From NCBI GenBank assembly GCA_002284855.1, contig CP015603.1:248001-312000 (forward strand): a DNA stretch of 64,000 nucleotides, given 5' to 3'. Position 1 is the first letter of the stretch; the number at the start of each line of letters is the position of its first letter. Below the pieces are notes generated by a model. That model saw only the letters and a list, made by a program, of their open reading frames with translations. It had not been told where the DNA came from and ran no database searches. The position numbers and the translations under genes were made by a program. This stretch comes from Actinobacteria bacterium IMCC25003. GTDB lineage: Bacteria; Actinomycetota; Actinomycetes; Nanopelagicales; Nanopelagicaceae. Below are positions 9,910 through 59,461 of the stretch, in pieces.

Positions 9910-10220
9910 GATTAATACTCTTCGTTCTGGGTGCAGGAATAGGCGCGCCACTTCGCTATCTGATTGATAAGTTCTTCCGCGCCCGTTATACATTTCCAGT
10001 AGGAATATTGATCATTAACGTGCTTGGCTCATTTATTTTTGGTTACGCACACTCAAACTATTTTGTAATGGGATTCGCTGGCGCCTTCACAACATGGTCA
10101 GCATTCTTATTAGATCTCGACAAGGATTTGCCATTCCGCAGGCGGACAGCGATCAACATCGCACTTACCTTTGGACTTTCAATCGCAGCAGTTGCTGCAG
10201 GCGCTGCTTTAGCGTCCTAA
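9906..10220 (+). CDS. crcB: Fluoride channel subunit CrcB/FluC (second copy)
   Basis: Second Fluc subunit of 104 residues, starting ATG in an ATGA overlap with the first. It has GAGIGAPLRYLID, GILIINVLGSFIFG and GFAGAFTTWSAFLLDL. Paired crcB genes usually encode a dual-topology heterodimer forming two fluoride pores in the cytoplasmic membrane. The 3' end overlaps the convergent aminopeptidase gene by 12 bases, so no terminator can lie between them. I saw no fluoride riboswitch upstream, as expected for a gene embedded in an operon. Confidence 0.9.
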   Translation: MRLILFVLGAGIGAPLRYLIDKFFRARYTFPVGILIINVLGSFIFGYAHSNYFVMGFAGAFTTWSAFLLDLDKDLPFRRRTAINIALTFGLSIAAVAAGAALAS

Positions 10221-14700: not shown

Positions 14701-15070
14701 TGAAAAGAACTTCCAGCGCTATCGCCATTATTTGGCGCCTATTGTGGTTGTTGTCGATGAATCAACCACACAAGATGAAAAATCATTGATTCATTACATC
14801 TCTGAAAAAACTGGGGCAAAAGTTATCTTCACAACTGATTTAAGTGATGTGAAAGAGAAATATGCTCGCGTTCGCTGGCTTGCTTCAAGTAAGCCACCCA
14901 TTTATGAAGAGATGCTCAAAGGTATTTCAGTAGATCATCGCCCCATTGCACAACGTGGAGATATCGAAACTCCTCGATGGCTCATTGAACAATCTGTTGC
15001 GATTACCCATCACCGTTATGGCAATCCCAACGGAGGGCCAAAACCAGCCTGTTCAGGGCTATCGGCTTAG
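11738..15070 (+). CDS. putA: Bifunctional proline dehydrogenase / glutamate-semialdehyde dehydrogenase
   Basis: Oxidises proline to glutamate in two steps. The N-terminal FAD-dependent proline dehydrogenase barrel (~residues 80-480) includes VRLVKGANLAMERAEAEL and the C-terminal YLVRRLDENTSDENYL strand and helix. The aldehyde dehydrogenase domain (~510-1000) has PPWNFPYAIPMGG, the general-base Glu in LMAETSGKNA, and the nucleophilic Cys at ~765 in GHAGQKCSAAS. A ~100-residue C-terminal extension follows. There is no DNA-binding domain, so it is not self-regulating as in E. coli. A GATAAC element 8 bases before the ATG suggests a near-leaderless start. The TAG stop touches the left island repeat. 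Confidence 0.95.
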   Translation: MPSIFETDVALDKLAMTAITRTKELMEQSDKLRDRREKANRKRVARLFKDPKAIEATITLTDEVMRISSVKSSSRIFRRAAKKASITGFGPLNGLGLHAIGVISHVLPTPVVAAVHQRVRALSKDLILASEADKLSKHLGKRTEKGISLNINVLGEAVLGDHEAELRFQSILEMMRRPEVNYISVKLSSIVAQLIIIDVEGSINRVSEKMRILYREAIQHGVFVNLDMEEYRDLPMTVAAFMRVLDESEFESMKAGIVLQAYLPESHQFFAQLVDWSKARYARSGGAIKVRLVKGANLAMERAEAELHGWSSAPYRSKSDVDASYVRLVDVALRPEHSKAVRIGIASHNLFHMTWALEVAKSRGVVDQIDIEMLEGMANAEALAVTRAGQPVLLYAPVTRKDDFAAAVAYLVRRLDENTSDENYLKAAFEISKNPAKFKEQEERFLKSIAERHTITTESLRHVEHAITTGTTFENERNADPTEPHFIDAVSKAIKKVRAIKDQEIPLVINGKEIFTKEQEEGTDPSDNGKVWYHYSVGSAHDVDTAIETAKKAQAKWSGLTIDERTAILFKAAEVMQKATTETIAVMSRDAGKTVAEADPEVAEAIDFARFYATTAQNFGESTPLGTILVVPPWNFPYAIPMGGVCAALAAGNTVILKPAPETVATAWEIVSHLWAGGVPQDVLQFLPMRDDENGKYLVTNPGIDGLILTGSFDTAALFTSWRPEINLMAETSGKNAVLISACADIDAAVKDLVQSAFGHAGQKCSAASIAIVDTHIYNDPAFVRQLKDAVESLQVGAGWDFSTTVGPIIRPSENALTRALTQLDEGETWLVEPKQIDSAGLMWRPGVKLGVKAKSWSHRNEWFGPVLAVIEAPDFDTAINWQNETDFGLTAGIQSLDEQECEEWINRVEAGNLYVNRGITGAIVNRQPFGGWKRSAVGPNAKAGGLNYVNTLRLWPRVTNLEAAIYGVNTWWAKVGSQAIDRSGLIVEKNFQRYRHYLAPIVVVVDESTTQDEKSLIHYISEKTGAKVIFTTDLSDVKEKYARVRWLASSKPPIYEEMLKGISVDHRPIAQRGDIETPRWLIEQSVAITHHRYGNPNGGPKPACSGLSA

Positions 15071-15133
15071 ACGCTAGACTTAGCCAGAACTTGAAGACCT
15101 CGCATGGCTCGGTCGAGTGCGCCTCACTGCTAA
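15069..15133 (+). repeat. Left direct repeat: 5' half of tRNA-Ser(GCU) with its promoter
   Basis: This 65-base segment matches 29635-29699 at all but five positions. The match starts 24 bases before the tRNA 5' end, includes the TAGACT -10 element, and stops exactly after the anticodon loop CTGCTAA. The tRNA-like part is 15093-15133; its acceptor strand reads GAAGACC where the intact gene has GGAGACG, and no 3' half follows, so it cannot be functional. It abuts the putA stop and marks the left edge of the accessory region. Confidence 0.88.
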
Positions 15134-15142
15134 ATTATCTAC

Positions 15143-15757
15143 GTGAGAATCGATAACATCCCATTTGATTTAGAGTCTAAGCAATCAAATCTTTGGAATT
15201 ACAATGCAAAGGAAAAAAAGCTTAAAGTTTTAGCGCTTCCACACTCAGATATTTATATAAATCCAGCAGGAATGAATTCACTAGATGCACAATCTCTAAT
15301 GAACGCCACCACTTTCTTAGGAGTCCCACCTGAAGGAGATTTTCAGTTTTCTGCAAAAATCACCGTTGGATTTAAGTCTCAGTATGATGCGGGTGTTTTG
15401 CTGATTTGGAGCGATGAAAATTACTGGGCAAAGTTTTGTTTTGAATATTCACCCGCTTCAAATCCAATGGTTGTTTCAGTAGTAACACTCAACGTCTCTG
15501 ACGATGCCAACTCTTTTATCGTGCCAGACAATTCAATTTGGTATCGGGTCTCAAGGCAGGACAATGTCTATGCACTACATGCAGCAACAGATGGAAAATT
15601 TTGGCAACTCATTAGAGTTTTCACGCTTGGTAAAGAGACCAAGAACCACAAAGTAGGTTTTTTGGCCCAATCACCGACAGGAGAAGGATGTGAGATTCTG
15701 TTTCAAGAAATTAACTTTTCACAGAAAAGATTAATCGAGCTTCGAGATGGTTCCTAA
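15143..15757 (+). CDS. DUF1349-family concanavalin-like protein
   Basis: A 204-residue soluble protein resembling the DUF1349 group (YesU, 'regulation of enolase 1'), a concanavalin-A-like beta sandwich. Readable family-like segments are GDFQFSAKITVGFKSQYDAGVLL, ENYWAKFCFEYS, and DGKFWQLIRVF...HKVGFLAQSP. The fold suggests glycan or sugar-ligand binding, but the activity is unknown. The GTG start has a TAAATT element 6 bases upstream that is created by the end of the tRNA fragment. It is AT-richer than putA and is the first gene inside the left island boundary, convergent with dhaL. Confidence 0.7.
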   Translation: MRIDNIPFDLESKQSNLWNYNAKEKKLKVLALPHSDIYINPAGMNSLDAQSLMNATTFLGVPPEGDFQFSAKITVGFKSQYDAGVLLIWSDENYWAKFCFEYSPASNPMVVSVVTLNVSDDANSFIVPDNSIWYRVSRQDNVYALHAATDGKFWQLIRVFTLGKETKNHKVGFLAQSPTGEGCEILFQEINFSQKRLIELRDGS

Positions 15758-15758
15758 C

Positions 15759-16346
15759 CTAACTTTGTAGCGCTTCAAAAACGACGGCAATTACTGTCGC
15801 TCCCGCATCTTCATTGCCTTGAGCTCGTTCTCCAATCCACCCTGCGCGACCGTGCTTAGGTGCCATTGATGCTGTGGCAACAACTCCGGCTCGCGCCGCA
15901 GTTGCTGCTGCATTAAGTCCAGATTTAAGATCAGTTGCACCTTTCAGAGCTTCCGAAGCAGGATGCAGGGCATCAAGGAGAGTTCGTTCGCCAAGTGAAG
16001 CCTTGCCACGTGTGGCAATACCTTCATAGGCGGCGGCAACACCAAGTTGCACATTGTTTAGCGCATCAACATCAGCAACTGCTGCAGATGCTCGGATAAA
16101 TCCAGTTGCAAAAAGTGTTCCGAAAGTGGATGGTGCATTCTTAGCTATCTCTCTACCAAGCAACATCAAATCTGCTTTTAAATCGCCAGTTGCACCCGCA
16201 GCACCTGCGCGAAGACCTTTTGCAATATTTCCTGCAGTAATGCCAAGGTCACCATCACCAGCAACTGAATCCAACTCTTCAAACTTTTTTGAGTTGGCTT
16301 CAAGTGCTGCCGCAACAGTCTCAATCGATTCAGTAAATGAACTCAT
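15759..16346 (-). CDS. dhaL: Dihydroxyacetone kinase-type L subunit
   Basis: Nucleotide-binding subunit of a split dihydroxyacetone-type kinase. The metal/ADP-binding signature DSVAGDGDLGITAGNIAKGL is near residue 27, and the C-terminal half has the repeated alanine-rich helices of the DhaL barrel plus KHGRAGWIGERAQG. At 195 residues it is a full DhaL. The start overlaps the dhaK stop by four bases. No DhaM (PTS phosphodonor) lies nearby, so ATP is the likelier phosphate source. The substrate could be dihydroxyacetone, another triose or a tetrulose. Confidence 0.88.
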   Translation of the reverse strand: MSSFTESIETVAAALEANSKKFEELDSVAGDGDLGITAGNIAKGLRAGAAGATGDLKADLMLLGREIAKNAPSTFGTLFATGFIRASAAVADVDALNNVQLGVAAAYEGIATRGKASLGERTLLDALHPASEALKGATDLKSGLNAAATAARAGVVATASMAPKHGRAGWIGERAQGNEDAGATVIAVVFEALQS

Positions 16347-17344
16347 GCTTGTGTGAAGAAAGGTGTATGAACGGGTGTATTGATGTAATTAAGTAGTTCA
16401 TCATCGACGCGAATAACGCTGATAGAAGCACCTGCCATCTCAAGAGAGGTAGCAAATTCCCCAACATAAGCGCGAGCCACATTTACCCCATAGCCAGTAA
16501 GCAATTTCTTTGCTTGGCGGAAGATAATGTAAAGCTCTTCTGGGGGAGTTGCTCCAAGGCTGTTGACTAGTACACACACCTTCTCGCCAGATTTTAGATC
16601 TAAATCTTTCTTGATTGCTGAGACCAGCTCTTCGGTAATTTGATCAGCATTTTCAAGTTTGCTCTTTCGAATTCCAGGTTCACCGTGAATGCCCATACCG
16701 ATTTCCATTTCACCGGCTTTTACTTCAAAGGTGGGATGTCCAACGGCAGGAAGTGTTACTGGGCTTAGAGCAACACCCATGGTGCGAGTTTGAGCGGCGG
16801 CTTTATTTGTCACAGCAACAACATCATCTAGCGAAAGGCCCTTTGCAGCAGCAGCACCTGCAACTTTATAAAGGAAAAAAATCCCAGCAATACCGCGACG
16901 TCGAGCTTCTTCACCTTTCGGTGCTGAAGCAACGTCGTCAGCCCCGAGAACGGTCTCGACACGTATACCTTCAGCTGCTGCAAGTTCAGTTGCGAAATCA
17001 AAATTAAAAACATCTCCGCCGTAATTTCCATATATGTAGAGAACGCCTGCACCAGCATCAACCTTCTTCGTTACCGCGAGCATCTGTTCTGCTGTCGGAC
17101 TTTGAAAGACATCACCAACCGCAACGCCATCAAGCATTCCCTTTCCTACATATCCCAGGAAGAGTGGAAGGTGACCAGAGCCACCACCGGTAGCAATTCC
17201 GACCTTGCCAGCTACCGGTGCATCTGCACGCACTAATGAGTGGTTATCGCCATCAACAGCTTTGAGCTGGCTGGGGTAGGCATCGAGGATCCCCTCGAGC
17301 ATCTCATTGACGAATTCTGTGGGGACATTCAGGATTTTTTGCAT
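16343..17344 (-). CDS. dhaK: Dihydroxyacetone kinase-type K subunit
   Basis: Substrate-binding subunit that holds a ketose covalently through a histidine. GMGIHGEPGIRKSKL contains that histidine, and the N-terminal GGGSGHLPLFLGYVGKGMLDG is the family's glycine-rich signature. Length 333 is that of a stand-alone DhaK. The ATG (17344-17342) has GAAAGG about 13 bases upstream. It is divergent from the sugar-binding protein gene across a 171-base regulatory region with a perfect inverted repeat, and it shares that region with the transport operon. Confidence 0.92.
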   Translation of the reverse strand: MQKILNVPTEFVNEMLEGILDAYPSQLKAVDGDNHSLVRADAPVAGKVGIATGGGSGHLPLFLGYVGKGMLDGVAVGDVFQSPTAEQMLAVTKKVDAGAGVLYIYGNYGGDVFNFDFATELAAAEGIRVETVLGADDVASAPKGEEARRRGIAGIFFLYKVAGAAAAKGLSLDDVVAVTNKAAAQTRTMGVALSPVTLPAVGHPTFEVKAGEMEIGMGIHGEPGIRKSKLENADQITEELVSAIKKDLDLKSGEKVCVLVNSLGATPPEELYIIFRQAKKLLTGYGVNVARAYVGEFATSLEMAGASISVIRVDDELLNYINTPVHTPFFTQA

Positions 17345-17376
17345 GATTTGAGTCTACCTTTCGGGTAATTCACGAA

Positions 17377-17396
17377 TTATAACAAAAATGTTATAA
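17377..17396 (+). promoter_or_regulatory. Inverted-repeat operator candidate
   Basis: TTATAAC-AAAAAT-GTTATAA is a perfect 7-base-arm palindrome lying 33 bases before the dhaK start and 27 bases before the -35 of the binding-protein promoter. Its AT-rich TAACA/TGTTA arms suit a DeoR-family repressor, and such a gene lies in the same island (28431-29198). A similar sequence lies at 28407-28433. Confidence 0.5.
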
Positions 17397-17422
17397 CTAA
17401 AGATGGTTTTTTAACGCAACTC

Positions 17423-17452
17423 TTGACCGAATTTGTTAAAACAGAATATATT
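17423..17452 (+). promoter_or_regulatory. Sigma-70-like promoter of the sugar transport operon
   Basis: TTGACC (17423-17428) and TATATT (17447-17452) are separated by 18 bases. Transcription would start near 17459, leaving an ~57-base leader. The spacer contains TGTTAAAACA, a possible further repressor half-site pair. This is the clearest two-box promoter in the window and contrasts with the leaderless -10-only starts of backbone genes. Confidence 0.65.
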
Positions 17453-17515
17453 CACCTTAACTCAAGGGGTCAACCTGAAGTGGTTCCCTGCCTAAGTTAC
17501 AAAAAAGGAGCACGA

Positions 17516-18514
17516 ATGAAGAAGTACAAGCTCGTAGCAGTTGTTGCTGCTACCGCACTGCTTGTTTCAGCTGGCATCTCAGGCAGCCAAGCAGCCGCAA
17601 AGAAGCGTTATGTAGTCTCCGTTAAGTTGATCGGCGTCGGCTGGTTCGACAACATGGATAAAGGTATTAAGGCATGGGCTAAAGCCAACAAGATTGACGC
17701 AACTATGACTGGTGCAACAGATGCATCACCAGAGAAGCAGTCAAAGATGATTGAAGATCTTATTGCACAGAAAGTTACTGGCATTGGTATTGTGCCAAAC
17801 GACGTAGCTTCTACAGATGGTGTGATTGCTAAGGCCAAGAAGGCTGGCATTAAGGTTGTTACACACGAAGCAGCAGGAATCAAGAATGCTGATGCTGACA
17901 TTGAAGCGTTCAATAACGCTGCATACGGCGCAGTCATGATGGATAACCTTGCTACATGTATGGGTGGAAGCGGAAAGTACGCAGCATTCGTAGGAACACT
18001 CACAAACGGAAGCCACAACGAATGGGTTGCTGGAGCGCTTGCACAGGCTAAGGCAAAGTATTCAGGTGTCACTCGTGTTGAAGATCCAATTGAGTCTAAG
18101 GAAGATGCAGATGTTGCCTACAACAAGACCAAGGAACTTCTCAAGAAGTACCCAGATCTCAAGGGTGTAGAGGGCTCATCAGCTAACGACGTAGTCGGAA
18201 TCGGCCGCGCTGTTGAAGAACTTGGTCTTAACGACAAGGTCTGCGTAATGGGAACATCAATTCCTTCAATGACAAGCAAGTACCTTGCTACCGGAGCGAT
18301 CGACAAGATCTTCTTCTGGGATTCAGCACTTGCAGGTCAAGCTATGTTGAACATGCTTGAAGTCCTTAATAAGGGCGGAAAGATCACAGCAGGAATGGAC
18401 CTTAAGGTTCCTGGCTACAACAAGATCGTAAAGATTCCTGGAACAACTAAGGGTTGGGCAGGAGCTGCTTGGGTTATTGTTGATAAGAACAACATGGCTA
18501 AGTACCCAATTTAA
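17516..18514 (+). CDS. Sugar ABC transporter substrate-binding protein (RbsB/LsrB class)
   Basis: Secreted periplasmic-binding-like protein, exported by a clear signal peptide (MKKYKLVAVVAATALLVSAG, cleaved around SQAAA). I chose the ATG at 17516 because AAAAGGAG precedes it and the signal peptide begins there; a longer reading has no such support. The fold is the peripla_BP_4 class. VVSVKLIGVGWFDNMDKG aligns by eye with the PKLVGVGFF start of LsrB, keeping the lysine, but the later LsrB ligand residues (Asp, Asp-Gln, Pro/Ala) are not recognisable. The ligand is therefore likely a sugar or polyol other than AI-2. No lipobox cysteine is present. Confidence 0.88.
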   Translation: MKKYKLVAVVAATALLVSAGISGSQAAAKKRYVVSVKLIGVGWFDNMDKGIKAWAKANKIDATMTGATDASPEKQSKMIEDLIAQKVTGIGIVPNDVASTDGVIAKAKKAGIKVVTHEAAGIKNADADIEAFNNAAYGAVMMDNLATCMGGSGKYAAFVGTLTNGSHNEWVAGALAQAKAKYSGVTRVEDPIESKEDADVAYNKTKELLKKYPDLKGVEGSSANDVVGIGRAVEELGLNDKVCVMGTSIPSMTSKYLATGAIDKIFFWDSALAGQAMLNMLEVLNKGGKITAGMDLKVPGYNKIVKIPGTTKGWAGAAWVIVDKNNMAKYPI

Positions 18515-18536
18515 TCCTTGGGAAAAATAGCTTGAA

Positions 18537-18570
18537 AAAAGTGGGGCGCGGGTAACCGCGCCTCACTTTT
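18537..18570 (+). terminator. Intra-operon terminator/attenuator after the binding-protein gene
   Basis: A 15-base stem AAAAGTGGGGCGCGG / CCGCGCCTCACTTTT with loop GTAA and one G-U pair, 22 bases after the binding-protein stop. Partial termination here would give more binding protein than membrane components, a common arrangement in sugar ABC operons. Confidence 0.85.
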
Positions 18571-18630
18571 ACTTAAAAGGTAATAAACTAGAGGCGACCC
18601 ACTACAGCGAAGAAAGGCATGTAACAGAAA

Positions 18631-20127
18631 ATGTCTACGCTGCTCACCGCTGAATACGGGGTTGAAAATATTGTAAAGAGTTTTGGTGGTGCAAAAGCAC
18701 TTTCAGGAGTTTCGCTTTCAGTAAAAAGTGGAGAAGTTCACTGTATCGCTGGAGAAAATGGTTCTGGTAAGTCCACTCTTATTAAAATTATGAGTGGTGT
18801 TCACGCTCCTGATACGGGGCTTATAAGGTTAGGCGATAAATCATTTACTAAACTTTCACCTCGTGAAGCCGTTCACGAAGGCGTACAAGTTATTTTTCAA
18901 GATTTCTCTCTTCTTCCAAATCTTAGTGTCGCTGAGAATATTGCGATTCCTACTTACATCTCAGAGAATTCACGTTTTTTTAGTAAGAGCAAAACGAAAG
19001 AAATTGCCGCAAATGCGCTTGATTTAATCGGTGTAGATATTGACATTAATGCATCCGTTACAGACATTTCAATCGCATCAAAACAACTGATTGCAATTGC
19101 TCGAGCAACTAATCAGGGCGTGAAGATGCTATTTATGGACGAACCAACAACTGCGCTCACACGCAAAGAGATAAAGCACCTCTTTGAAGTAGTAGAACAA
19201 CTCAAGGAGCGCGGTGTAGCTACTATATTCGTAAGTCACAAAATTGATGAGATCCAAGAAATCTGTAACACCATCACGATTCTTCGAAATGGTGAAGTGG
19301 TTGCGGATGGAATTATGAGAGACTTTAAACGGGATTCAATCTCAGAAGCTATGACAGGGTTAAATGTTTCAGAAACACGCATAGCTCCCCCTCTAAAGAA
19401 AGCCTCCACAAAAGTAATTGAAGTAAGGAACCTGATCACAAAACCTACATTTTTAGATATTTCATTTTCTATCGCACCGGGTGAAATTCTGGGTATCACA
19501 GGCCTCTTGGGTTCTGGACGTACCGAGCTTGCTGAGGCAATCTTTGGTCAATATCCAATCGATTCGGGAGAAGTAATTGTGGAGGGCGAATCAATTCGCT
19601 TGAATTCATCTCCTGCGGCTCTCAAAGCTGGAATCGGATATGTTCCACCTGATCGTCTTACACAAGGACTATTTCTCGAGCAATCGATCTTGCGCAACCT
19701 TGTTGCAGTTGGAGTCGATCAGTATCAAAGTAGAGGTAAACGCCTTTCTAAGAAGCGCTTAGCTGAGGCTGGTGAGAAGTGGATAAAAGACCTTCGCATT
19801 AAGACAAAGAATTCGTTGAATCCAGTCACTTCTCTCTCAGGTGGTAACCAACAACGCGTGGTACTTGCAAAGTGGCTTGCCATGAATCCAAAGTTAATGA
19901 TTCTTAATGGACCAACAGTGGGTGTGGATATCGGCTCTAAGCGCGAAATTCTTGAAATCATCCGCGATCGCGCACAGGAGGGAATGGGCTTTCTGGTTGT
20001 ATCTGATGACATTCCAGAGTTAATTCAGATTTGTCACCGAGTGCTCGTAATCAAGAACGGTCAAATCTCAAAGGAATTTAATGAGTCAGAATTAGATGAA
20101 GAAGTTCTTTATAAGGAGTTAAGTTAA
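18631..20127 (+). CDS. Sugar ABC transporter ATP-binding protein (RbsA/LsrA-like)
   Basis: Double-cassette ATPase of 498 residues powering CUT2-class sugar import. The first cassette has GENGSGKSTLIKI (Walker A) and MLFMDEPTTAL (Walker B). The second has a degenerate Walker A (GLLGSGRTELAEAI), LSGGNQQRVVLAKWL (signature) and LMILNGPTVGVDIG. Such an asymmetric second site is normal for RbsA-type proteins, though the Walker B glutamate position reads NGP where many have DEP. The gene follows the attenuator; GAAAGG lies ~14 bases before the ATG. It is AT-richer than the backbone. Confidence 0.93.
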   Translation: MSTLLTAEYGVENIVKSFGGAKALSGVSLSVKSGEVHCIAGENGSGKSTLIKIMSGVHAPDTGLIRLGDKSFTKLSPREAVHEGVQVIFQDFSLLPNLSVAENIAIPTYISENSRFFSKSKTKEIAANALDLIGVDIDINASVTDISIASKQLIAIARATNQGVKMLFMDEPTTALTRKEIKHLFEVVEQLKERGVATIFVSHKIDEIQEICNTITILRNGEVVADGIMRDFKRDSISEAMTGLNVSETRIAPPLKKASTKVIEVRNLITKPTFLDISFSIAPGEILGITGLLGSGRTELAEAIFGQYPIDSGEVIVEGESIRLNSSPAALKAGIGYVPPDRLTQGLFLEQSILRNLVAVGVDQYQSRGKRLSKKRLAEAGEKWIKDLRIKTKNSLNPVTSLSGGNQQRVVLAKWLAMNPKLMILNGPTVGVDIGSKREILEIIRDRAQEGMGFLVVSDDIPELIQICHRVLVIKNGQISKEFNESELDEEVLYKELS

Positions 20128-20129
20128 TT

Positions 20130-21152
20130 ATGGACTTTAAGAAACTCCTTCGTCGCAATGAGACTGCGCTGATTATTGCAATAGTTCTTCTCTCTGTGAT
20201 TATCGGTGCAAAAAGTCCAGAGTTCTACTCTTTAGCTAACCTCTTTGATATCTTCCGATCGTCATTTGTGCAGCTTCTCTTTGCACTTGGAGTGCTTGTT
20301 GTGATTATCAGTGGGGGAATTGACGTCTCTTTCCCCGTGGTTGGAATATTCTCGGGTTACTCAGCTGTTGTTCTGATGAAGCACTTTGATTGGAACCCAG
20401 GAAATGTTTCGCTACCTATTGCACTCGCAATTGTAATTGGAGTTATTTTGGGAGCGCTTAACTCGATTGCGATTGCAAGTTTTGGTATACCCACACTGAT
20501 TGCGACCTTGGGAACCTCTGGAATATTTAGAGGGATTATGCTCACGTTTATCGGATCATCATTTATTAGCGATATTCCAGCTGCACTCGACAAGTTTGCA
20601 ACCGCAGATCTTCTCAAGATTCAGCCAGCCGAGGGGACGCTTGCTCGTTTGCACGTATTAATAATTCCAGTAGTAATCATCACCATTCTTGTATCACTCA
20701 TGCTAAATCGAACAATGTTTGGTCGATCCGTTTATGCACTAGGTGGTGGCGTGGAAGCAACACGACGCCTAGGTATTTCCATTAAGCGGACTCAAGCAAA
20801 GGTATATATGTTTGTCGGAGGCATATCAGGGCTTGCTGGAATTTTGTATGTATCGCTTCAAAGAAAAGCCAACCCATATGATCTTTATGGATCCGAACTC
20901 GACATTATTGCTGCAGTAGTCCTTGGTGGTGCAAGCATTATGGGTGGATACGGCACAGTCTTCGGAACAGTTCTAGGTGTTCTTCTAATCAGCCTAATAA
21001 AAGGAAATCTGATTCTTCTTGGCGTCAGTGGTTCGTGGCAGCGCGCAGCGATTGGCGCCTTACTCCTCATTGGTATTACCGTTCAGGCAATTAATGAGAG
21101 TAAGAAAGCTAAAAACCGAAGAGTTTCCACAAGCGATGAGGTGGCTGGGTAA
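20130..21152 (+). CDS. Sugar ABC transporter permease (RbsC/LsrC-like), first
   Basis: Polytopic membrane permease of 340 residues with about eight to ten hydrophobic helices. It has the CUT2 signatures VVIISGGIDVSFP, FGIPTLIATLGTSGIFRGI and DIIAAVVLGGASIMGGYGTVFGTVLGVLL. It starts 2 bases after the ATPase stop and overlaps the second permease gene (TAATG). With its partner it would form a heterodimeric channel, as LsrC/LsrD do, unlike the RbsC homodimer. Confidence 0.92.
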   Translation: MDFKKLLRRNETALIIAIVLLSVIIGAKSPEFYSLANLFDIFRSSFVQLLFALGVLVVIISGGIDVSFPVVGIFSGYSAVVLMKHFDWNPGNVSLPIALAIVIGVILGALNSIAIASFGIPTLIATLGTSGIFRGIMLTFIGSSFISDIPAALDKFATADLLKIQPAEGTLARLHVLIIPVVIITILVSLMLNRTMFGRSVYALGGGVEATRRLGISIKRTQAKVYMFVGGISGLAGILYVSLQRKANPYDLYGSELDIIAAVVLGGASIMGGYGTVFGTVLGVLLISLIKGNLILLGVSGSWQRAAIGALLLIGITVQAINESKKAKNRRVSTSDEVAG

Positions 21153-23263: not shown

Positions 23264-23276
23264 AAGGAGCACCAAC

Positions 23277-24812
23277 ATGGGTCAGGACCTACTTCTGGGA
23301 ATAGATATTGGCACTTATGAATCTAAAGGAGTGCTCGCTACTCCGCAAGGTGAAGTTATTGCTCAAGCTGCGATTCCACACAAGTTACTCTTCCCTCATG
23401 CTGGATGGGCCGAACACGATCCAGAACTAACTTGGTGGGGAGATTTTTGCACCCTATCTAAATCCCTTTTATCTACAGATGGTGTGAGCCCACAGGACGT
23501 AAAGGGAGTAGCTGTAAGCGCCATTGGCCCTGACGTGCTTCCGATTGATGAAAATTTCAAACCGCTCCGTATGGGAATCCTCTATGGAATAGATACCCGA
23601 GCCGTAGTGGAGATTGATGAATTAAATGCAAAACACGGAGAAGATGTCATATTCAATGAGACAGCCAATAGCCTCTCATCACAATCAACAGGTCCTAAAA
23701 TTCTTTGGCTGAAGAAGAATGAACCAGAGATATACAAGAAAGCGCGCTGGTTTGTAGATGCGACAACATTTATTGTTGCTCGCCTTACGTCACGCGTCGT
23801 CGTCGATCATTTTTCTGCCGGAGCAATGGTTCCAATGTATGACCCTTGGAAGCGTGAGTGGAATCCGAAGTACACCAAGGGGATTTTAGAGGTCAATCAG
23901 CTTCCAGAAATCTTGTGGAGCCATGAGATAGCTGGTCACATCACGGAATCTGCTTCAAAAGAAACTGGATTAGCAGTTGGGACTCCGGTAACTACAGGAA
24001 CTATTGACGCTGGAGCCGAAGCGTTAAGTGTTGGTGTTATTGAACCTGGCGAAATGATGATGATGTATGGGTCAACAATTTTTATGATCCAAGTTACCGA
24101 TAACGACCAAGCACGCGATAAGCGGCTTTGGGCTAATCCATATCTATTCCCAGGTACCTGGTGCTTACTTGCAGGCATGGCGACAAGTGGCGCGCTTACT
24201 AGATGGTTTAGAGATAATTTTGCAAAAGAGCTGATTACCGCTGAAGAAAACGGTGGAGAGAATTCCTATTCAGTTCTCGTAAAAGAGGCAGAAGCGACAC
24301 CAGCGGGTGCCGAAGGCGTGATTGTCCTTCCATACTTCAGCGGAGAACGTACGCCGATCATGGACCCTCGTGCACGAGGGATGATCTTTGGTTTAAGTCT
24401 CACGCATACGCGTGGTCATCTCTTTAGAAGCGTCCTAGAAGGCATGGGACATGGCGTTAAGCAACACGTTGACCTCTTCACGGCCATAGGAGCGCGCCCG
24501 CGCAGAATTAAATCTGTAGGAGGTGGAACTAAGAACGCGGTATGGCTTCAAGCGGTAAGTGATATTTCTGGTGTGCCTCAAGAAGTGGCACCACTTACTT
24601 TTGGAGCTTCATATGGTGATGCACTTCTAGCAGGAGTTGCCGTTGGCTTAGTTTCTGGCCCTGAAGAGATTCTTGTCTGGCAGGGGCAGTCAAAGATAAT
24701 TGAACCAGATAAAAAATTAGCAGCTACCTATGCCCCATTAAGCGAGATCTACTCTTCGCTCTATCAATCAACTAAAGAACAGATGCACAAACTCCATGAA
24801 ATGGATTACTAA
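23277..24812 (+). CDS. FGGY-family carbohydrate kinase
   Basis: Cytoplasmic ATP-dependent sugar kinase of 511 residues, in the xylulokinase/LsrK group. LLLGIDIGTYESKGVL is the N-terminal phosphate-1 motif. HAGWAEHDPELTWW and GTIDAGAEALSVGV are FGGY hallmarks. KSVGGGTKNAVWLQAVSDISG is the C-terminal nucleotide-binding segment. It would phosphorylate the imported sugar or its oxidised product. AAAGGAGCACC precedes the ATG. It ends 6 bases from the convergent alcohol dehydrogenase gene, with no obvious terminator between them. Confidence 0.9.
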   Translation: MGQDLLLGIDIGTYESKGVLATPQGEVIAQAAIPHKLLFPHAGWAEHDPELTWWGDFCTLSKSLLSTDGVSPQDVKGVAVSAIGPDVLPIDENFKPLRMGILYGIDTRAVVEIDELNAKHGEDVIFNETANSLSSQSTGPKILWLKKNEPEIYKKARWFVDATTFIVARLTSRVVVDHFSAGAMVPMYDPWKREWNPKYTKGILEVNQLPEILWSHEIAGHITESASKETGLAVGTPVTTGTIDAGAEALSVGVIEPGEMMMMYGSTIFMIQVTDNDQARDKRLWANPYLFPGTWCLLAGMATSGALTRWFRDNFAKELITAEENGGENSYSVLVKEAEATPAGAEGVIVLPYFSGERTPIMDPRARGMIFGLSLTHTRGHLFRSVLEGMGHGVKQHVDLFTAIGARPRRIKSVGGGTKNAVWLQAVSDISGVPQEVAPLTFGASYGDALLAGVAVGLVSGPEEILVWQGQSKIIEPDKKLAATYAPLSEIYSSLYQSTKEQMHKLHEMDY

Positions 24813-24818
24813 TTCTTT

Positions 24819-25847
24819 CTAAGGGTTAAGCATCACTCGATAACTTGGGGCTGATGTAGCGCGGTGGAATGCCTCCGCCGCATCCAGTATTGGAAATGTT
24901 GCATCAATGATTGGGGATAAATCAATCTGCCCGGTCGCAATCAAATTTGTTGCAACTGCATGATCTCGTCTATCAGCACTTACGACACCTACAGCTGAAG
25001 TTTCGCGATTGTGCATCAAGTTCGGGTCAATTGAAAATGGAGTAACTGGGTGTGCGGATGCAAAGAGACAGATTTTTCCGCGAGCATTGAGAACATCTAG
25101 TGCGTCTTGGTTTACTTCTTCACTTCCGTAAGCCGCAATTGAATAGTCGACTCCACCCAAAAATGCAGCTTTTACTCGCTCACGAATATCTGGCCCACTT
25201 TTCAGAATTACATCAGCACCCAGCGCCTTTGCTTTTGCAAGTCGTCCCTCGTTAACATCGACAACACCCACACGAAGACCAGACATTTTTAAAACCATCA
25301 TGTTCAGTAGCCCCATTGTGCCTGCACCAAAAACTACAGCGGTATCACCGAGTTGTGCACCCAGCAGTCTGGCTGCATGAATTGCACAGGAAAGAGGCTC
25401 TGCAAGGGCTGCTTGATCCCAGGGGGCGTCTCCAACATTAAAGACTCCGTCGCTGCGATGGACCTTGTATTCAGCAAAACCACCAGGTCCGTAGAACCCG
25501 CCCTTGAGTGAAAAATTAAGGAAGTGTTCAACACAACCTTTATCTTCACCACGAAGACAAGCGCGACAAGTGCCACAAGCAGAGGAGCCCATAGTGACGC
25601 GATCGCCAACTTTGACATTCGTGACAAGTTCACCAATTGCAGCAATCTCTCCTGCATTTTCATGGCCACCAAGGAGTGGGTATTCAGCTTTTGCTTGTCC
25701 CGTGTAGATGCGTTGTTCCCAAGTACATAATCCTGCAGACTTAATCTTTAAGAGGACATCACGTGGTCCAATTTCAGGCATTGGAACATCTACGACCTCA
25801 ATCTTGTTAATTCCTGCTATTGCAGCTGCTTTCATCATCTGGGTCAT
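24819..25847 (-). CDS. Zinc-dependent alcohol/polyol dehydrogenase (MDR family)
   Basis: Medium-chain dehydrogenase of 342 residues. Catalytic zinc ligands are in GLCTWEQRI (Cys) and GGHENAGE (His-Glu). The structural zinc site CGTCRACLRGEDKGC has four cysteines. VVFGAGTMGLLNMMVLK is the dinucleotide-binding Rossmann motif, followed by an aspartate (VVDVNEGR) that favours NAD. The sequence is closest in style to sorbitol/threonine dehydrogenases, so the substrate is probably a polyol. It is last in the minus-strand operon, starting 4 bases after the aldolase stop. Confidence 0.88.
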   Translation of the reverse strand: MTQMMKAAAIAGINKIEVVDVPMPEIGPRDVLLKIKSAGLCTWEQRIYTGQAKAEYPLLGGHENAGEIAAIGELVTNVKVGDRVTMGSSACGTCRACLRGEDKGCVEHFLNFSLKGGFYGPGGFAEYKVHRSDGVFNVGDAPWDQAALAEPLSCAIHAARLLGAQLGDTAVVFGAGTMGLLNMMVLKMSGLRVGVVDVNEGRLAKAKALGADVILKSGPDIRERVKAAFLGGVDYSIAAYGSEEVNQDALDVLNARGKICLFASAHPVTPFSIDPNLMHNRETSAVGVVSADRRDHAVATNLIATGQIDLSPIIDATFPILDAAEAFHRATSAPSYRVMLNP

Positions 25848-25851
25848 CTTG

Positions 25852-26682
25852 CTACTTCTTCTCTAACACGAGCATTGCTTGATCAACAGAGGCATCTTTA
25901 TGAACAATTGCACGGATAGCTTGGATAAATTTCGCTGGTGTTGGATGCTGAACAATATTTCTTCCATATACAACACCTGATGCGCCGGTATCAATTGCGG
26001 TACGAGTTCTTTCGAGGAGTTCGCGTGCAGGAACGGAACCACCACCACGAACTAATACTGGAATACCAGAGGCGATTTCGACGATTTGTCCGAAGTCGCT
26101 CATGGGATTTGTTGGATCCACTTTGATCAGATCTGCCCCTAATTCAACAGCTTGGCGTACAAGAGCAGCAATTTTATCGACATCTCCAACAGATGCTGAA
26201 CCTGCACCTGGTTTTGCAGTCATCACCAATGGCTCAACCATGAGCGGAATACCTTCTTCACGGCATTTTGCGCCGATTAATTGAATGTTTTGGATGCATT
26301 GTTCTTGTAGACGTGAATTCTCATCAAGATTAAGCAGATTAAGGACCACGACATTTACATTCTTAGCGAATGCATCCTGAAGAGTTGCGATGTTTGCCGT
26401 ATCCCATGGGTATTCGATATCGCGAGCTTCATACACATTTGTGACATCCAAGCGAAGCGCAATCGCAATATCGGTATCCAAGTTGAGTGAGTTATAGATC
26501 TTCAACCCACCCGGATTTAACTGGATGGCGTCTGGCTTGCCTTTAACAATTTCTGGGAGAGCTTTCGACAAGTCCTCAATACCTTTTGAAAACGATCTAT
26601 CTCCAAAAACGCCAAGATCTAGTGCGATGTTGATGCATTTTCCAGACTTACTGTTGAACATTCCTTCAAGTCGCTTATTCAC
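25852..26682 (-). CDS. DhnA/LsrF-type class I aldolase
   Basis: TIM-barrel class I aldolase of 276 residues. ADLIKVDPTNPMSDF contains the likely Schiff-base lysine. PLMVEPLVM is the strand before it, and VLVRGGGSVPARELLERT the phosphate-binding glycines, followed by GASGVVYGRNIVQHP. The family includes archaeal FBP aldolase, LsrF and sugar-phosphate aldolases, so the exact reaction is not readable. In context it should cleave a phosphorylated sugar acid or ketose made by the FGGY kinase. Its start overlaps the dehydrogenase gene upstream by 8 bases. Confidence 0.87.
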   Translation of the reverse strand: MNKRLEGMFNSKSGKCINIALDLGVFGDRSFSKGIEDLSKALPEIVKGKPDAIQLNPGGLKIYNSLNLDTDIAIALRLDVTNVYEARDIEYPWDTANIATLQDAFAKNVNVVVLNLLNLDENSRLQEQCIQNIQLIGAKCREEGIPLMVEPLVMTAKPGAGSASVGDVDKIAALVRQAVELGADLIKVDPTNPMSDFGQIVEIASGIPVLVRGGGSVPARELLERTRTAIDTGASGVVYGRNIVQHPTPAKFIQAIRAIVHKDASVDQAMLVLEKK

Positions 26683-27562
26683 TTAGATCAACTCCAGCTC
26701 GGTTTGAAATCACTTTCACAATTGCGGAGGCATTTAGTTCACCCATACCCGCATCAACGCCTTCTTTAGCTAGCTCTTCAGTGGTTATTGCAATAGAGAC
26801 CGGAGAATCTAAGCGATTTGCGAAGGCTTGAATCAACTTAGCATCTTTGAGCATTAACTTGAGCGGGAAATTTACTTCGTAGTCTCCCTTGATGACTCCT
26901 GCACCAACGCCAGCGTAGATCGGAGTCTTAAAATCGGCGACTGCTGCGACTTCTAGAACTGTTGTGAGGTTCAATCCAGCTTTCTTTGCAAGAGATAGCG
27001 CCTCACCTATCGAAACAATTTGTGAAGCAACAAGGAGATTCCCAACCAGCTTCATTTTCGTTCCATTGCCGCCTTCACCCATATAGTGACGTGTTTCGCT
27101 GATGGGTTCGAGTACTTTCAGAGATTGATCGAAAACATCTTTAGATCCACCAATGACTATCCAAAGTCCTCCATCGCGGGCCTCACCCTTCGTTCCAAAT
27201 ACAGGTGCATCCAAGAAGGAAATTCCGCGGTCTTCATAGATTTTTCGTTCAACAGCACTGGTTTCAGGGTCTATTGTCGAAAGGTCAATCACGATAGTTC
27301 CCTTCTCGACTTTGGAAGCGAGTGAAGGGCCCTTTAAGAAGATGGCCTCAACTGCTGCATCATCTGCAAGGCAGTACATAAGAAAATCAGCACCAGGAAT
27401 TAATTCAGTTGGGTCTGAGACAGTTTTAGCACCAATCTTTTCAATTTCGCCGTACTTACTCGCTGATCGATTCCACACTGTTACATCGTGGCCAGCCTTA
27501 ACGAGATTACTAACCATCCCTGATCCCATTATTCCAAGACCAATGAAACTTACTTTTGCCAT
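26675..27562 (-). CDS. 3-hydroxyisobutyrate dehydrogenase-family oxidoreductase
   Basis: NAD(P)-dependent beta-hydroxyacid dehydrogenase, 295 residues. FIGLGIMGSGMVSNLVKAGHDVTVWNR is the Rossmann motif; the Asn-Arg after strand 2 leaves cofactor choice open. FLDAPVFGTKGEARDGG is the substrate-loop signature (usually DAPVSGG), and GGNGTKMKLVGNLL carries the catalytic lysine. Relatives include tartronate-semialdehyde reductase (GarR), L-threonate dehydrogenase and sulfolactaldehyde reductase. It could reduce an aldehyde released by the adjacent aldolase. Confidence 0.88.
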   Translation of the reverse strand: MAKVSFIGLGIMGSGMVSNLVKAGHDVTVWNRSASKYGEIEKIGAKTVSDPTELIPGADFLMYCLADDAAVEAIFLKGPSLASKVEKGTIVIDLSTIDPETSAVERKIYEDRGISFLDAPVFGTKGEARDGGLWIVIGGSKDVFDQSLKVLEPISETRHYMGEGGNGTKMKLVGNLLVASQIVSIGEALSLAKKAGLNLTTVLEVAAVADFKTPIYAGVGAGVIKGDYEVNFPLKLMLKDAKLIQAFANRLDSPVSIAITTEELAKEGVDAGMGELNASAIVKVISNRAGVDLSE

Positions 27563-27571
27563 GTATATCTC

Positions 27572-28375
27572 CTAACGAGATTTATTTGCAGCTTCGACGA
27601 GTTCAATAACTCGCTTTGGGTCTACAGGGTTAAAAGTCTTACCATCTACTTTCATACTGCTACCCGCAATCACACCGTCAGCGATTTTGAGAGTCTCGCC
27701 AATTGTCTTTGCATTTACTCCAGTATTTGCAAAGACAGGAATATTCTTTGCTGTCTCTTTTGCTGCAAGTAAATCCTCATTACTAAATGGAACTCCTGCA
27801 ACCGGTCCAGATATCAGAATTGCATCAAAGCCGAAGTATTCAGCGGCCTTTGCGCGCTGTTGGACTGTGCGCCCTTCTAGCGCTGAAGCAAATTCTGGAA
27901 CGATATTTGTGAAAAGCGCTATATGTTCAGCCTTCAACCGTGTTCTAGTTTGTGCCACAAGTGCAGGATCTGGAGCAAGCAGACCCATCTCGCTCGCAAA
28001 TGCTCCACACATAACTTCGCGAACAAAAGATGCACCGGATGCGGATGCAGCTTCAATAGAAGCAATCGGATCCCACAAGAGATTGACTCCATATGGAAGT
28101 TTGAGCTGATCATGTACAGCTCCGATCATGAAGGTGGTCCACGCCCCAACTTCTGAATTTACGCGGGTGGTGTAAGGCAGGTCGCTTTCATTACAGAAGA
28201 GAAGGCCATCGACCCCGCCATCTTGGAGCGCTTTCACATCTGCTTTGACTGAGTTAATAAATTCAACCAAGTCGGGCTTGCTCTTAAACTGAGGTTGCCC
28301 AGGTGAAGCCGGGAGATGAACCATTCCGATAACTGGCTTCTGGGTCCTAAAAATTGACGATAGCTCGATAACCAT
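27572..28375 (-). CDS. BtpA/SgcQ-family protein
   Basis: TIM-barrel-like protein of the BtpA family. It has KPVIGMVHLPASPGQP at the N-terminus, DALQDGG-like VKALQDGGVDGLLFCNE, PYGVNLLWDPIASIEAA, and the FANTGVNAKTIGETLKIADGVIAGSSMK C-terminal phosphate-binding-like segment. I placed the start at ATG 28375 (MVIELSSIF) because GGGAGGAAG lies 5 bases upstream; a longer reading is possible. BtpA was linked to photosystem I in cyanobacteria, but SgcQ homologues in sugar operons remain uncharacterised. It is the first gene of the minus-strand operon, directly after the candidate operator. Confidence 0.83.
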   Translation of the reverse strand: MVIELSSIFRTQKPVIGMVHLPASPGQPQFKSKPDLVEFINSVKADVKALQDGGVDGLLFCNESDLPYTTRVNSEVGAWTTFMIGAVHDQLKLPYGVNLLWDPIASIEAASASGASFVREVMCGAFASEMGLLAPDPALVAQTRTRLKAEHIALFTNIVPEFASALEGRTVQQRAKAAEYFGFDAILISGPVAGVPFSNEDLLAAKETAKNIPVFANTGVNAKTIGETLKIADGVIAGSSMKVDGKTFNPVDPKRVIELVEAANKSR

Positions 28376-28406
28376 GCACTGACTTCCTCCCGATAGGGAC
28401 AAAATC

Positions 28407-28433
28407 TAACACAAAAAATGTAATGAAATGTTA
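28407..28433 (-). promoter_or_regulatory. Candidate DeoR operator and promoter before the btpA gene
   Basis: The segment has TAACA at one end (28407-28411) and its complement TGTTA at the other (28429-28433). Inside lies GTAATGAAATGTTAC, an imperfect palindrome resembling the 17377-17396 site (TAACAAAAATGTTA). On the minus strand a TGTGTTAGAT stretch could be an extended -10 for the btpA operon. The distances are not identical to the first site, so this is tentative. Confidence 0.4.
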
Positions 28434-29198
28434 CCCGTTTGGGGTCAGAATAGTCGCCTCAGCGCCTACCTGGCGCTTCAAGGAATCAACTCCATCGCTG
28501 GATGTAACAAATTCATCTACTACCTCAAGGCCGGCCACTTGGTAATTGGCGGTAACCCCGCTCTTGGAAGGGTCAACAAGGACGATTACCTCCTCGCAAC
28601 GTTCAATCATAGAACGGCTGACATCAGCCACAGATTCAACAAACTCTGTCAGGCCACCCTTTTTTGAGACTCCACCAACACCAATAATTGATCGTGTAGC
28701 GATGTAACGATGAATAGTTTCTTGTGCAATTACTCCAGTCTGGGCCAGGTGATCCCTTACTAATCCACCAGTGCTAATGACTTCAATCCCTCGAGAAGAA
28801 AGTAGGGAAGCGTGAGCGAGCGAAGGGGTAATTACAGTGAGATCGAAGTTGCTTGGCAGAAATTGCGCAAATACTGCCGTTGTTGAACCCGGTCCAACGA
28901 AGATAACTTCCCCTCTTTCAATCAGCGAGGCGGCATATTGACCAATCTGAGTTTTTGCAAGCGTTTGATCCGCCGCACGAGGGTGTAACAAAATATCTTG
29001 GGTATTAATTAGCTGCGCCGATGCACCACCACGAGTTGTCTTTAAATATCCGCTTTCTTCTAAAATTCGTAAATCACGACGGATAGTCATTGAAGAGACG
29101 CCAAGTTCATCTGCAAGGCTCGCAAAATCTACTGCGTTCTCGGAAGCAACTTTTTCCAGAATCTTTTGGTGGCGTTCAACAGAAAGTAAGCGTCGCAT
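28431..29198 (-). CDS. DeoR-family transcriptional regulator
   Basis: Repressor with an N-terminal winged HTH (RRLLSVERHQKILEKV, then SSMTIRRDLRILEESGYLKTTRGGA, the classic DeoR recognition helix) and a C-terminal sugar-phosphate-binding ISOCOT-like domain (VIFVGPGSTTAVFAQFL, IGVGGVSKKGGLTEF). Length ~255. The ATG at 29198 fits the family N-terminus; a TTG at 29213 would add five residues. It probably responds to a phosphorylated intermediate of the island pathway and controls the AT-rich palindromes at 17377 and 28407. Confidence 0.9.
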   Translation of the reverse strand: MRRLLSVERHQKILEKVASENAVDFASLADELGVSSMTIRRDLRILEESGYLKTTRGGASAQLINTQDILLHPRAADQTLAKTQIGQYAASLIERGEVIFVGPGSTTAVFAQFLPSNFDLTVITPSLAHASLLSSRGIEVISTGGLVRDHLAQTGVIAQETIHRYIATRSIIGVGGVSKKGGLTEFVESVADVSRSMIERCEEVIVLVDPSKSGVTANYQVAGLEVVDEFVTSSDGVDSLKRQVGAEATILTPNG

Positions 29199-29216
29199 AA
29201 TGATTAAGTCCAAGTG

Positions 29217-29528
29217 CTACAGAGCAGCTTTTGAACTTTCGCCTCCAAATAAAGCACTTCCTTGATAAACGGTTAATGGCTCTGAAAGAAGGTCCTCGAG
29301 TTTTCCAAGGAAAGATTTAACATGGCTGGTTTCAAGGTGCGAGGCAAAAGCTGCAGCATCCTTATAAACTTCAATATTCATAAAGGTTCCAGGTTGATCT
29401 ATAAGTTCATGGACGAAGTATCCACGGACACCATTTTCTTTCCATGACGCAGTTGCGCCTGCATGTAACTCGGCATGGAGTTCAGATTCTTTTCCAGGTT
29501 TTGCTTTAAAAATCGCAGTGACAATCAT
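29217..29528 (-). CDS. ABM-domain putative quinol monooxygenase (LsrG/YgiN-like)
   Basis: Small ferredoxin-like dimeric alpha/beta barrel protein of about 103 residues: VTAIFKAKPGKESELHAEL, then FVHELIDQPGTFMNIEVYKDAAAFASHLETSH, the typical antibiotic-biosynthesis-monooxygenase layout with the HLETSH end of the third helix. LsrG, an AI-2 phosphate isomerase, shares this fold and operon setting. The ATG at 29528 has GAAAGG 6 bases upstream. It is the first gene of the minus-strand group, ahead of the regulator. Confidence 0.82.
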   Translation of the reverse strand: MIVTAIFKAKPGKESELHAELHAGATASWKENGVRGYFVHELIDQPGTFMNIEVYKDAAAFASHLETSHVKSFLGKLEDLLSEPLTVYQGSALFGGESSKAAL

Positions 29529-29634
29529 TGCCAACCTTTCTTTTCCTCAACAGAAGGTGAAGTTTGAGAGAGTCTAGTACTCAAGCCTTCGAGGCAAAAG
29601 ATGCCTATAAACCAAGGCAGAGCCAGAGTTCTGG

Positions 29635-29699
29635 AGACGCTAGACTTAGCCAGTACTTGGAGACGTCGCATAGCCCGGTCGAGTGCGCCTCACTGCTAA
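29635..29699 (+). repeat. Right direct repeat, overlapping tRNA-Ser(GCU) 5' half
   Basis: This is the partner of 15069-15133 (five mismatches in 65 bases, the last 24 bases identical). It starts immediately after a small perfect inverted repeat CCAGA-GT-TCTGG (29623-29634) and includes a TAGACT -10 element (29641-29646) 12 bases before the tRNA. The match ends at the anticodon loop. Confidence 0.88.
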
Positions 29700-29750
29700 C
29701 GAGGTAAGGGGTTAAACCCTTCAGGAGTTCAAATCTCCTCGTCTCCGCCA
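29659..29750 (+). tRNA. tRNA-Ser(GCU)
   Basis: Acceptor GGAGACG (29659-29665) pairs with CGTCTCC (29740-29746), then discriminator G and an encoded CCA (29748-29750). Loop CTGCTAA gives anticodon GCT (29695-29697). The variable arm AAGGG/CCCTT and T-arm AGGAG-TTCAAAT-CTCCT are intact. The anticodon stem CCTCA/CGAGG has an A-C mismatch at position 31:39, next to the point where the left repeat ends. It forms the right boundary of the accessory island. Confidence 0.94.
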
Positions 29751-34852: not shown

Positions 34853-34957
34853 CTTTTTGGCAAAATGAGCCTGCGAAGGTAGAGATTGATGGCGAATCCA
34901 CTCTATTTGGCGTGAATTCGCCTAGCGGACCACGGCTTTCTCGGGCAGAATTTTGTG

Positions 34958-58517: not shown

Positions 58518-58534
58518 AAGAAAATTTTTACTGC

Positions 58535-58864: not shown

Positions 58865-58906
58865 AGATAAATTGTCGCACCATTTGTAGTGTTCGTGAAG
58901 TCTAAT

Positions 58907-59401: not shown

Positions 59402-59461
59402 GCCACATGATGACTAACTCGGAAAATCAGGCGCGCAAGTTATCCACAGATTAGAAATTAC

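What the first reader, a model, noticed from the sequence alone, without database searches (positions are those of the whole stretch)
15069..29750. Accessory island bounded by a half copy and an intact copy of tRNA-Ser(GCU)
Seen: 65-base direct repeats at 15069-15133 and 29635-29699 (five mismatches). The left one is only promoter plus 5' half of the tRNA; the right one continues into a complete tRNA with CCA. Between them lie ~14.5 kb of coherent sugar-catabolism genes, with AT-richer genes, Shine-Dalgarno starts and a two-box promoter, while the backbone on both sides uses leaderless starts. Established: tRNA genes are common integration sites. Inference: this is a transferred or exchangeable metabolic island. 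No integrase is present.
Basis: partly seen in the sequence, partly recalled or inferred. Interest (0 to 1): 0.8.

Follow-up and report, generated by a model that had tools for sequence, protein, structure and literature searches.

The report
tRNA-anchored sugar-catabolism island without integrase
In a tiny-genome aquatic bacterium, a block of sugar-use genes sits between half a copy and a whole copy of a tRNA gene; relatives carry other genes or nothing at that spot, so it is a real swappable gene island of a known general kind, with some unusual details.

Summary
Observation confirmed. 15069-15133 repeats 29635-29699 (five mismatches; none expected by chance). The left copy is promoter plus tRNA-Ser(GCU) nt 1-41; the right copy continues into the genome's only intact tRNA-Ser(GCU). 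The 14.5 kb between is AT-richer (GC3 36.5% vs 42.9%) and holds no integrase.

Interpretation supported. Across the genus this tRNA is a two-sided insertion hotspot. Eight relatives have pepP-tRNA-fprA with nothing inserted; others carry unrelated metabolic cargo (57 kb in one). Nearest relative G040 lacks the island. putA is itself accessory, so the true left border is pepP. The same 14-gene cassette abuts tRNA-Arg(ACG) in four other genomes; a divergent cousin adjoins tRNA-Tyr.

Mechanism (inferred): most tRNA-Ser fragments break at the anticodon stem-loop; G136/G002 give a before/after pair for a precise insertion there. This fits tyrosine-recombinase integration, the integrase lost or acting in trans. 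The window island is the rarer polarity (5' fragment displaced), and both repeat copies come from one lineage, so homologous duplication is not excluded.

Synonymous sites are saturated, so transfer is not recent. New member of a known kind: tRNA-anchored flexible genomic island.

The parts
10209..11663 (-). pepP-like Xaa-Pro aminopeptidase; true conserved left border of the hotspot
   Evidence: pepP lies next to tRNA-Ser(GCU) with nothing between in G004, G014, G015, G029, G042, G047, G106, G151
11738..15070 (+). putA-like proline dehydrogenase / P5C dehydrogenase; accessory gene at the same hotspot
   Evidence: Full-length putA only in a clade (G040, G022, G059, G043, G002, G051, G018, G025 in the 61-genome sample) plus 58-59% copies in G037 and G052; G100, G112, G117, G135, G136 also carry it
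15069..15133 (+). left repeat: tRNA-Ser(GCU) promoter spacer (24 bp) plus 5' half, nt 1-41 (tRNA nt 1 at 15093); dead fragment
   Evidence: the 24-nt spacer is 23/24 identical to the right copy but at most 17/24 to any other genome compared
15143..15757 (+). c1: DUF1349 protein; not in the other copies of the island. Possible leaderless start: TAAATT overlapping the fragment's end lies 6 nt before the GTG (inference)
   Evidence: PF07081 E 1e-43; absent in G043, G014, G046
15759..17344 (-). c2-c3: DhaL-like and DhaK-like dihydroxyacetone/ketose kinase subunits
   Evidence: NCBIfam TIGR02365 and TIGR02363, below equivalog cut-offs
17423..22174 (+). c4-c7: sugar ABC transporter (RhaS/LsrB-like binding protein, RbsA/YtfR-like ATPase, two permeases)
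   Evidence: permeases by reading frame and operon position
22175..24812 (+). c8-c9: M42-family aminopeptidase-like protein and FGGY sugar kinase (XylB-like)
24819..28402 (-). c10-c13: zinc alcohol/polyol dehydrogenase, DeoC/LacD-type aldolase, HIBADH/threonate-dehydrogenase-like protein, BtpA family protein
28431..29534 (-). c14-c15: DeoR-family regulator and ABM-domain protein (LsrG-like size and domain); c15 is the end that abuts the tRNA
29635..29658 (+). tRNA promoter spacer (right copy) with -10-like TAGACT at 29641-29646
29659..29750 (+). intact, single-copy tRNA-Ser(GCU); rebuilt from the right-hand 5' half
29688..29704 (+). inferred crossover core CCTCACTGCTAACGAGG (anticodon stem-loop, tRNA nt 30-46)
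   Evidence: 3' fragments in relatives start at nt 27-32 (G060, G002, G056, G113, G141, G165); 5' fragments end at nt 41-47 (G000, G041, G124)
29775..31049 (+). fprA-like ferredoxin/NADP reductase; conserved right border

Best explanation
The feature is a flexible (additive) genomic island carrying a sugar-uptake and catabolism cassette, inserted at the single-copy tRNA-Ser(GCU) gene, a two-sided insertion hotspot of this genus. Shown: the anatomy, the hotspot, the patchy presence, the same cassette at two tRNA genes, and anticodon-loop breakpoints in relatives. Inferred: a DNA circle carrying the cassette plus a tRNA promoter and 5' half recombined with the chromosomal tRNA in the anticodon stem-loop. 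The old promoter and 5' half were left as the dead fragment at 15069-15133, and the essential tRNA was rebuilt from the incoming promoter and 5' half joined to the resident 3' half. A tyrosine recombinase that is now lost, or was supplied in trans, most likely catalysed it; the cassette is now immobile on its own and may be exchanged by homologous recombination through its conserved flanks. By family content the cassette imports and breaks down an unidentified carbohydrate.
For: Repeat and sole intact tRNA. Alternative or no cargo between the same borders: G040 and G022 putA-409 aa gene-tRNA (a lactone oxidase in G040); G100 putA-two genes-tRNA; G002, G117, G136 putA-569 aa gene (IlvD-family dehydratase in G002) and others; G037 57 kb between tRNA and fprA; eight empty sites. 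Sister genomes differ: G000/G040 and G043/G002 pair in the putA tree, one of each pair with the island. Same 14 genes abut tRNA-Arg(ACG) in G014, G028, G046, G137, as far as contigs reach. tRNA-Ser fragments in relatives break at the anticodon stem-loop. G136 aligns without gaps to G002 for 7515 bp up to the tRNA end and again for 977 bp from tRNA nt 30 onward: a clean insertion. tRNA-Arg(ACG), 5 kb away, shows about 15 internal 3' fragments starting at nt 31/32, with a tyrosine recombinase between tRNA and fragment in G018 and G037. GC3 differs from backbone.
Against: No integrase in the island, in this genome, or in any tRNA-Ser insert examined. The two repeat copies share a spacer found nowhere else (23/24 vs at most 17-18/24), so the second copy came from the same lineage; a local duplication fits too. 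Copies of the island in G043 and at tRNA-Arg have no 5' fragment at the far end, so the whole c1-c15 block need not be one event. No genome with putA directly followed by tRNA-Ser was found. In G000 the match stops at nt 41, short of the core edge at 46.
Confidence: 0.62

Rival explanations
1. The island was acquired and is exchanged by homologous recombination. The nearly invariant 5' part of the tRNA and the flanking genes serve as anchors; the half tRNA is a decayed duplicate of a full copy made by a Campbell-type (single-crossover) insertion of same-lineage DNA.
For: Both repeat copies share a lineage-specific spacer. Full tRNA-Ser(GCU) duplicates occur in G010, G059, G132, G138, G162, G169 and internally deleted ones in G128. 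The tRNA 5' 46 nt are invariant in every intact copy compared while 3' halves vary. No integrase.
Against: Breakpoints in unrelated genomes, in both polarities, fall on the anticodon stem-loop; four 3' fragments share a 91% conserved 113-bp arm found nowhere else; the G136/G002 pair is precise.
Confidence: 0.27
2. The cassette is ancestral, vertically inherited and repeatedly lost; its place next to tRNA genes is incidental.
For: Synonymous divergence of the island equals that of the backbone between G000 and G043 and between G000 and G014.
Against: Only 5 of 61 genomes have it at about 90% identity. It sits at different tRNA genes in different clades. Amino-acid identity to G014 is 87% vs 77% for backbone (p = 1e-4), though synonymous saturation weakens that argument.
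Confidence: 0.1
3. The half tRNA is a chance similarity or assembly artefact.
For: None found.
Against: Zero chance matches; complete single-contig genome; similar 5' fragments inside contigs of G041 and G124.
Confidence: 0.01

Closest known systems
tRNA-anchored additive flexible genomic islands of 'Ca. Actinomarinales' (fGI1), PMC7771536
   Same: Streamlined aquatic actinobacteria; single-copy tRNAs as hot spots for gene cassettes; partial-tRNA direct repeat at the end of inserted cassettes; the word integrase does not occur in that paper
   Different: There mainly envelope-glycosylation cargo; here sugar catabolism. Here the displaced part is promoter + 5' half, and one cassette is found at several tRNA genes
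Islander-type genomic islands (tRNA + tRNA fragment + integrase), PMC4383910
   Same: Intact tRNA and displaced fragment mark the ends; anticodon-centred crossover (class A, 2083 of 3919 islands); 5' fragment upstream of the tRNA is an allowed configuration
   Different: No integrase inside, so the Islander filter would reject it; 5'-fragment islands are rare there (159 of 3919)
pTN3-like archaeal integrases and rare bacterial cases that use the tRNA 5' half (reviewed in PMC8371274)
   Same: The recombinant tRNA ends up under a promoter brought by the element
   Different: Those encode their integrase; none is present here
Tycheposons and tRNA-repeat additive fGIs in Methylophilaceae, PMC10872708
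   Same: tRNA-bordered cargo islands with nutrient genes in streamlined aquatic bacteria
   Different: Tycheposons carry a tyrosine recombinase; their tRNA set and polarity were not compared here

Membership tests
tRNA-anchored flexible genomic island (additive fGI) | Variable cargo at a conserved chromosomal position in related genomes | tested here: met
tRNA-anchored flexible genomic island (additive fGI) | Intact tRNA at one end and direct-repeat tRNA fragment at the other | tested here: met
tRNA-anchored flexible genomic island (additive fGI) | Empty site in relatives | tested here: met
   pepP-tRNA-fprA in eight genomes; the exact pre-insertion state putA-tRNA was not found
Islander-type integrase island | Integrase gene within the island | tested here: not met
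   No PF00589 protein in the window
Islander-type integrase island | Fragment and tRNA in same orientation, 5' fragment upstream of the tRNA | tested here: met
Integrative and conjugative element / prophage | Conjugation, relaxase or phage structural genes | tested here: not met
   Family content of the 13 island proteins scanned is metabolic or regulatory; the two permeases were judged from sequence only
Tycheposon | Own tyrosine recombinase with tRNA-bordered cargo | tested here: not met
   tRNA border present, recombinase absent
Lsr (autoinducer-2) uptake system | LsrACDB transporter, LsrK, LsrF, LsrG at equivalog level | tested here: not met
   LsrB, LsrA, LsrK and LsrF-type models match far below their curated cut-offs; c15 only matches the general ABM domain

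The most novel reading that the evidence does not exclude
The genus hosts a system of mostly integrase-less metabolic cassettes moved in trans between anticodon loops of several tRNA genes, like integron cassettes using tRNA genes as docking sites. Short (about 250 aa) tyrosine recombinases and arms with conserved sequence or structure (a D-arm copy of the target tRNA plus two covarying hairpins at tRNA-Arg and tRNA-Lys; a different 113-bp arm at tRNA-Ser) would form the machinery, and the window island would be one immobilised passenger.
Probability: 0.2. Interest if true: 0.8.

Novelty: new member of a known kind. Interest (0 to 1): 0.5.

Why it matters
Genome-streamlined plankton have few prophages or plasmids, yet differ in which sugars they can use. 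This locus shows one route: an essential single-copy tRNA as docking site for whole catabolic cassettes, with before/after examples in relatives. The same cassette at different tRNA genes makes it testable whether cassettes without integrases are moved by recombinases in trans.

Tried and rejected
Recent transfer judged from higher protein identity: rejected, since third-position and fourfold-site identity is the same for island and backbone. Integrase hidden in the island or in tRNA-Ser inserts: none by PF00589 over 61 genomes nor by Pfam on the insert proteins scanned. Phage origin of the tRNA half: no exact match of the 5' half or the core in IMG/VR. Counting every tRNA fragment as a remnant: hits at contig ends (G036, G127, G148, G152, G156, G160) were discarded as assembly cuts. 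G002 insert as one closed element: its two contigs' inner ends are only 87.6% alike over 3.3 kb, so the middle is unresolved. Leaderless vs SD contrast: only weakly supported. Rfam for the structured arms: no family. No structure prediction or fold search was run; they were not needed for the question.
Full report
SETTING. The window is G000 C1:248001-312000, part of a complete 1.35 Mb genome. All 135 held genomes of its genus were used for DNA searches and 61 for protein and family searches.

OBSERVATION. Confirmed as stated. The two copies match at 60 of 65 positions and no chance match is expected. The left copy covers 24 bp of promoter spacer and tRNA nt 1-41; the right copy continues into the only intact tRNA-Ser(GCU) of the genome. 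Island genes have GC3 36.5% against 42.9% elsewhere in the window (p = 7e-6). The contrast in start signals is weak.

HOTSPOT. Gene maps of relatives show pepP - tRNA-Ser(GCU) - fprA with nothing inserted in G004, G014, G015, G029, G042, G047, G106 and G151. Other genomes carry unrelated cargo upstream, downstream or on both sides. Examples: FAD-lactone oxidase in G040 (and an equally placed 409-aa gene in G022), IlvD-family dehydratase, gluconolactonase-like protein and phosphatase in G002, aldehyde dehydrogenase in G050, FGGY kinase in G023, glycerophosphate-oxidase-like protein in G018, an N-acetylglucosamine-type set in G002. In G037 the tRNA and fprA lie 57 kb apart. putA belongs to the variable part.

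THE SAME CASSETTE ELSEWHERE. The BtpA gene is found at about 90% identity in only G043, G046, G028 and G014 besides G000, of the 61. G043 has c2-c15 at the same place and orientation, without c1 or the half tRNA. In G014, G028, G046 and G137 the cassette abuts the 5' side of tRNA-Arg(ACG) with its c15/c14 end nearest the tRNA. More divergent relatives (UBA7398, F1-140) carry a c15-c14-c13-c8 version next to tRNA-Tyr(GTA). In the putA tree the closest relative, G040, lacks the island, as does G002, which groups with G043. Protein identity to G014 is 87% for the island and 77% for backbone (p = 1e-4), but third-position identity is 0.46 for both, so the event is old.

BREAKPOINTS. Excluding contig ends, 3' fragments of tRNA-Ser in G060, G002, G056, G113, G141 and G165 begin at nt 27-32, and 5' fragments in G000, G041 and G124 end at nt 41-47. 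Together they frame the anticodon stem-loop CCTCACTGCTAACGAGG. Other fragments (G003/G005/G007, G115, G128, G155/G166) break elsewhere and look like decaying copies. Four of the 3' fragments share a 113-bp upstream arm, 91-92% identical, that occurs nowhere else in the genus. G136 is a before-state of G002: its locus aligns without gaps for 7515 bp up to the end of the tRNA in one G002 contig, and for 977 bp from tRNA nt 30 in another. The incoming 3' half in G002 is followed by 61-68 bp of fprA start (100% to the window, 98.5% to G117), so the mobile DNA had picked up host sequence from a tRNA-fprA locus of the same clade.

NEIGHBOURING PARADIGM. tRNA-Arg(ACG), 5 kb downstream in the window, is targeted by more typical elements. 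About 15 internal 3' fragments start at nt 31/32, and a tyrosine recombinase lies between tRNA and fragment in G018 (251 aa) and G037 (405 aa). This makes a recombinase origin of the tRNA-Ser breakpoints likely, although none was seen in any tRNA-Ser insert.

MECHANISM. Best reading: site-specific recombination in the anticodon loop, with the incoming DNA supplying promoter and 5' half, so that the essential tRNA is now driven from the island side; the recombinase was lost or acted in trans. In a database of mapped islands 4% leave a 5' fragment and 53% are anticodon-centred (PMC4383910), and use of an element promoter for the rebuilt tRNA is rare in bacteria (PMC8371274). The main doubt: both repeat copies share a spacer unique to this genome, so a same-lineage donor or a local duplication must be assumed.

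CARGO. DhaK/DhaL-like kinase, sugar ABC transporter, FGGY kinase, DeoC/LacD-type aldolase, polyol and HIBADH-type dehydrogenases, BtpA, DeoR and ABM proteins suggest import and breakdown of a carbohydrate whose identity I cannot name; matches to Lsr, RhaS and XylB models are all below equivalog cut-offs.

NOVELTY. A new member of a known kind: additive, tRNA-anchored flexible genomic islands, as described for 'Ca. Actinomarinales' (PMC7771536). Less usual points are the 5'-fragment polarity, the same cassette at several tRNA genes, and the lack of any integrase.

BY-FIND. At tRNA-Arg(ACG) and tRNA-Lys(CTT) the element-side arm consists of a copy of the target tRNA's D-arm/anticodon 5' segment, two hairpins with strong covariation (17 of 21 predicted pairs changed on both sides in at least one sequence; counted on the tRNA-Arg arms) and then the 3' fragment. 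It is linked to a family of ~250 aa tyrosine recombinases in G018 and G014, 70% identical to each other. Rfam has no match.

Noticed in passing
L110:1486-7235 (G018), L113:2279-6510 (G014); also L132, L136, L187, L191, L192, L193, L194, L196: Integrative elements at tRNA-Arg(ACG) and tRNA-Lys(CTT): in G018 and G014 tRNA, ~250 aa tyrosine recombinase, cargo, then a structured arm (copy of tRNA nt ~13-33 plus two covarying hairpins, first loop GCGTAAGC) and the tRNA 3' fragment. The arm also occurs without a nearby recombinase in other genomes; no Rfam match.
   Followed up: partly
window 58432-59549: Two tRNA-Ser(GGA) copies, 95% identical over 84 nt, flank two small genes in a local GC minimum (41%): a second tRNA-duplication insertion in the same window.
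   Followed up: partly
L043:1297-1409, L054:5455-5565, L147:523-632, L148:12646-12758: 113-bp arm before tRNA-Ser 3' fragments, 91-92% conserved in four genomes and only there. It has a TGTAAACT box at the same distance as the real tRNA promoter and a start (GTAGATG) that could largely pair with the tRNA acceptor 3' strand.
   Followed up: partly
L111:4843-6538 (G050), L112:1989-3594 (G028): Tandem pairs of the ~250 aa tyrosine recombinase, not next to a detected tRNA.
   Followed up: no
L073:7518-7585 (G002): A 61-68 bp scrap of the fprA start follows the tRNA rebuilt by an insertion: host DNA captured by the mobile element.
   Followed up: yes
window 34955-37866: The two genes after tRNA-Arg(ACG) look accessory: in G105 and G101 the next conserved gene (window 37884) follows the tRNA directly, while G133 and G140 have both genes.
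   Followed up: partly
tRNA-Ser(GCU) of the genus; e.g. window 29659-29750: The first 46 nt are invariant in every intact copy compared, while the variable and T arms and the sequence after nt 90 come in several allelic types that do not obviously follow relatedness, suggesting swapping of 3' halves.
   Followed up: partly
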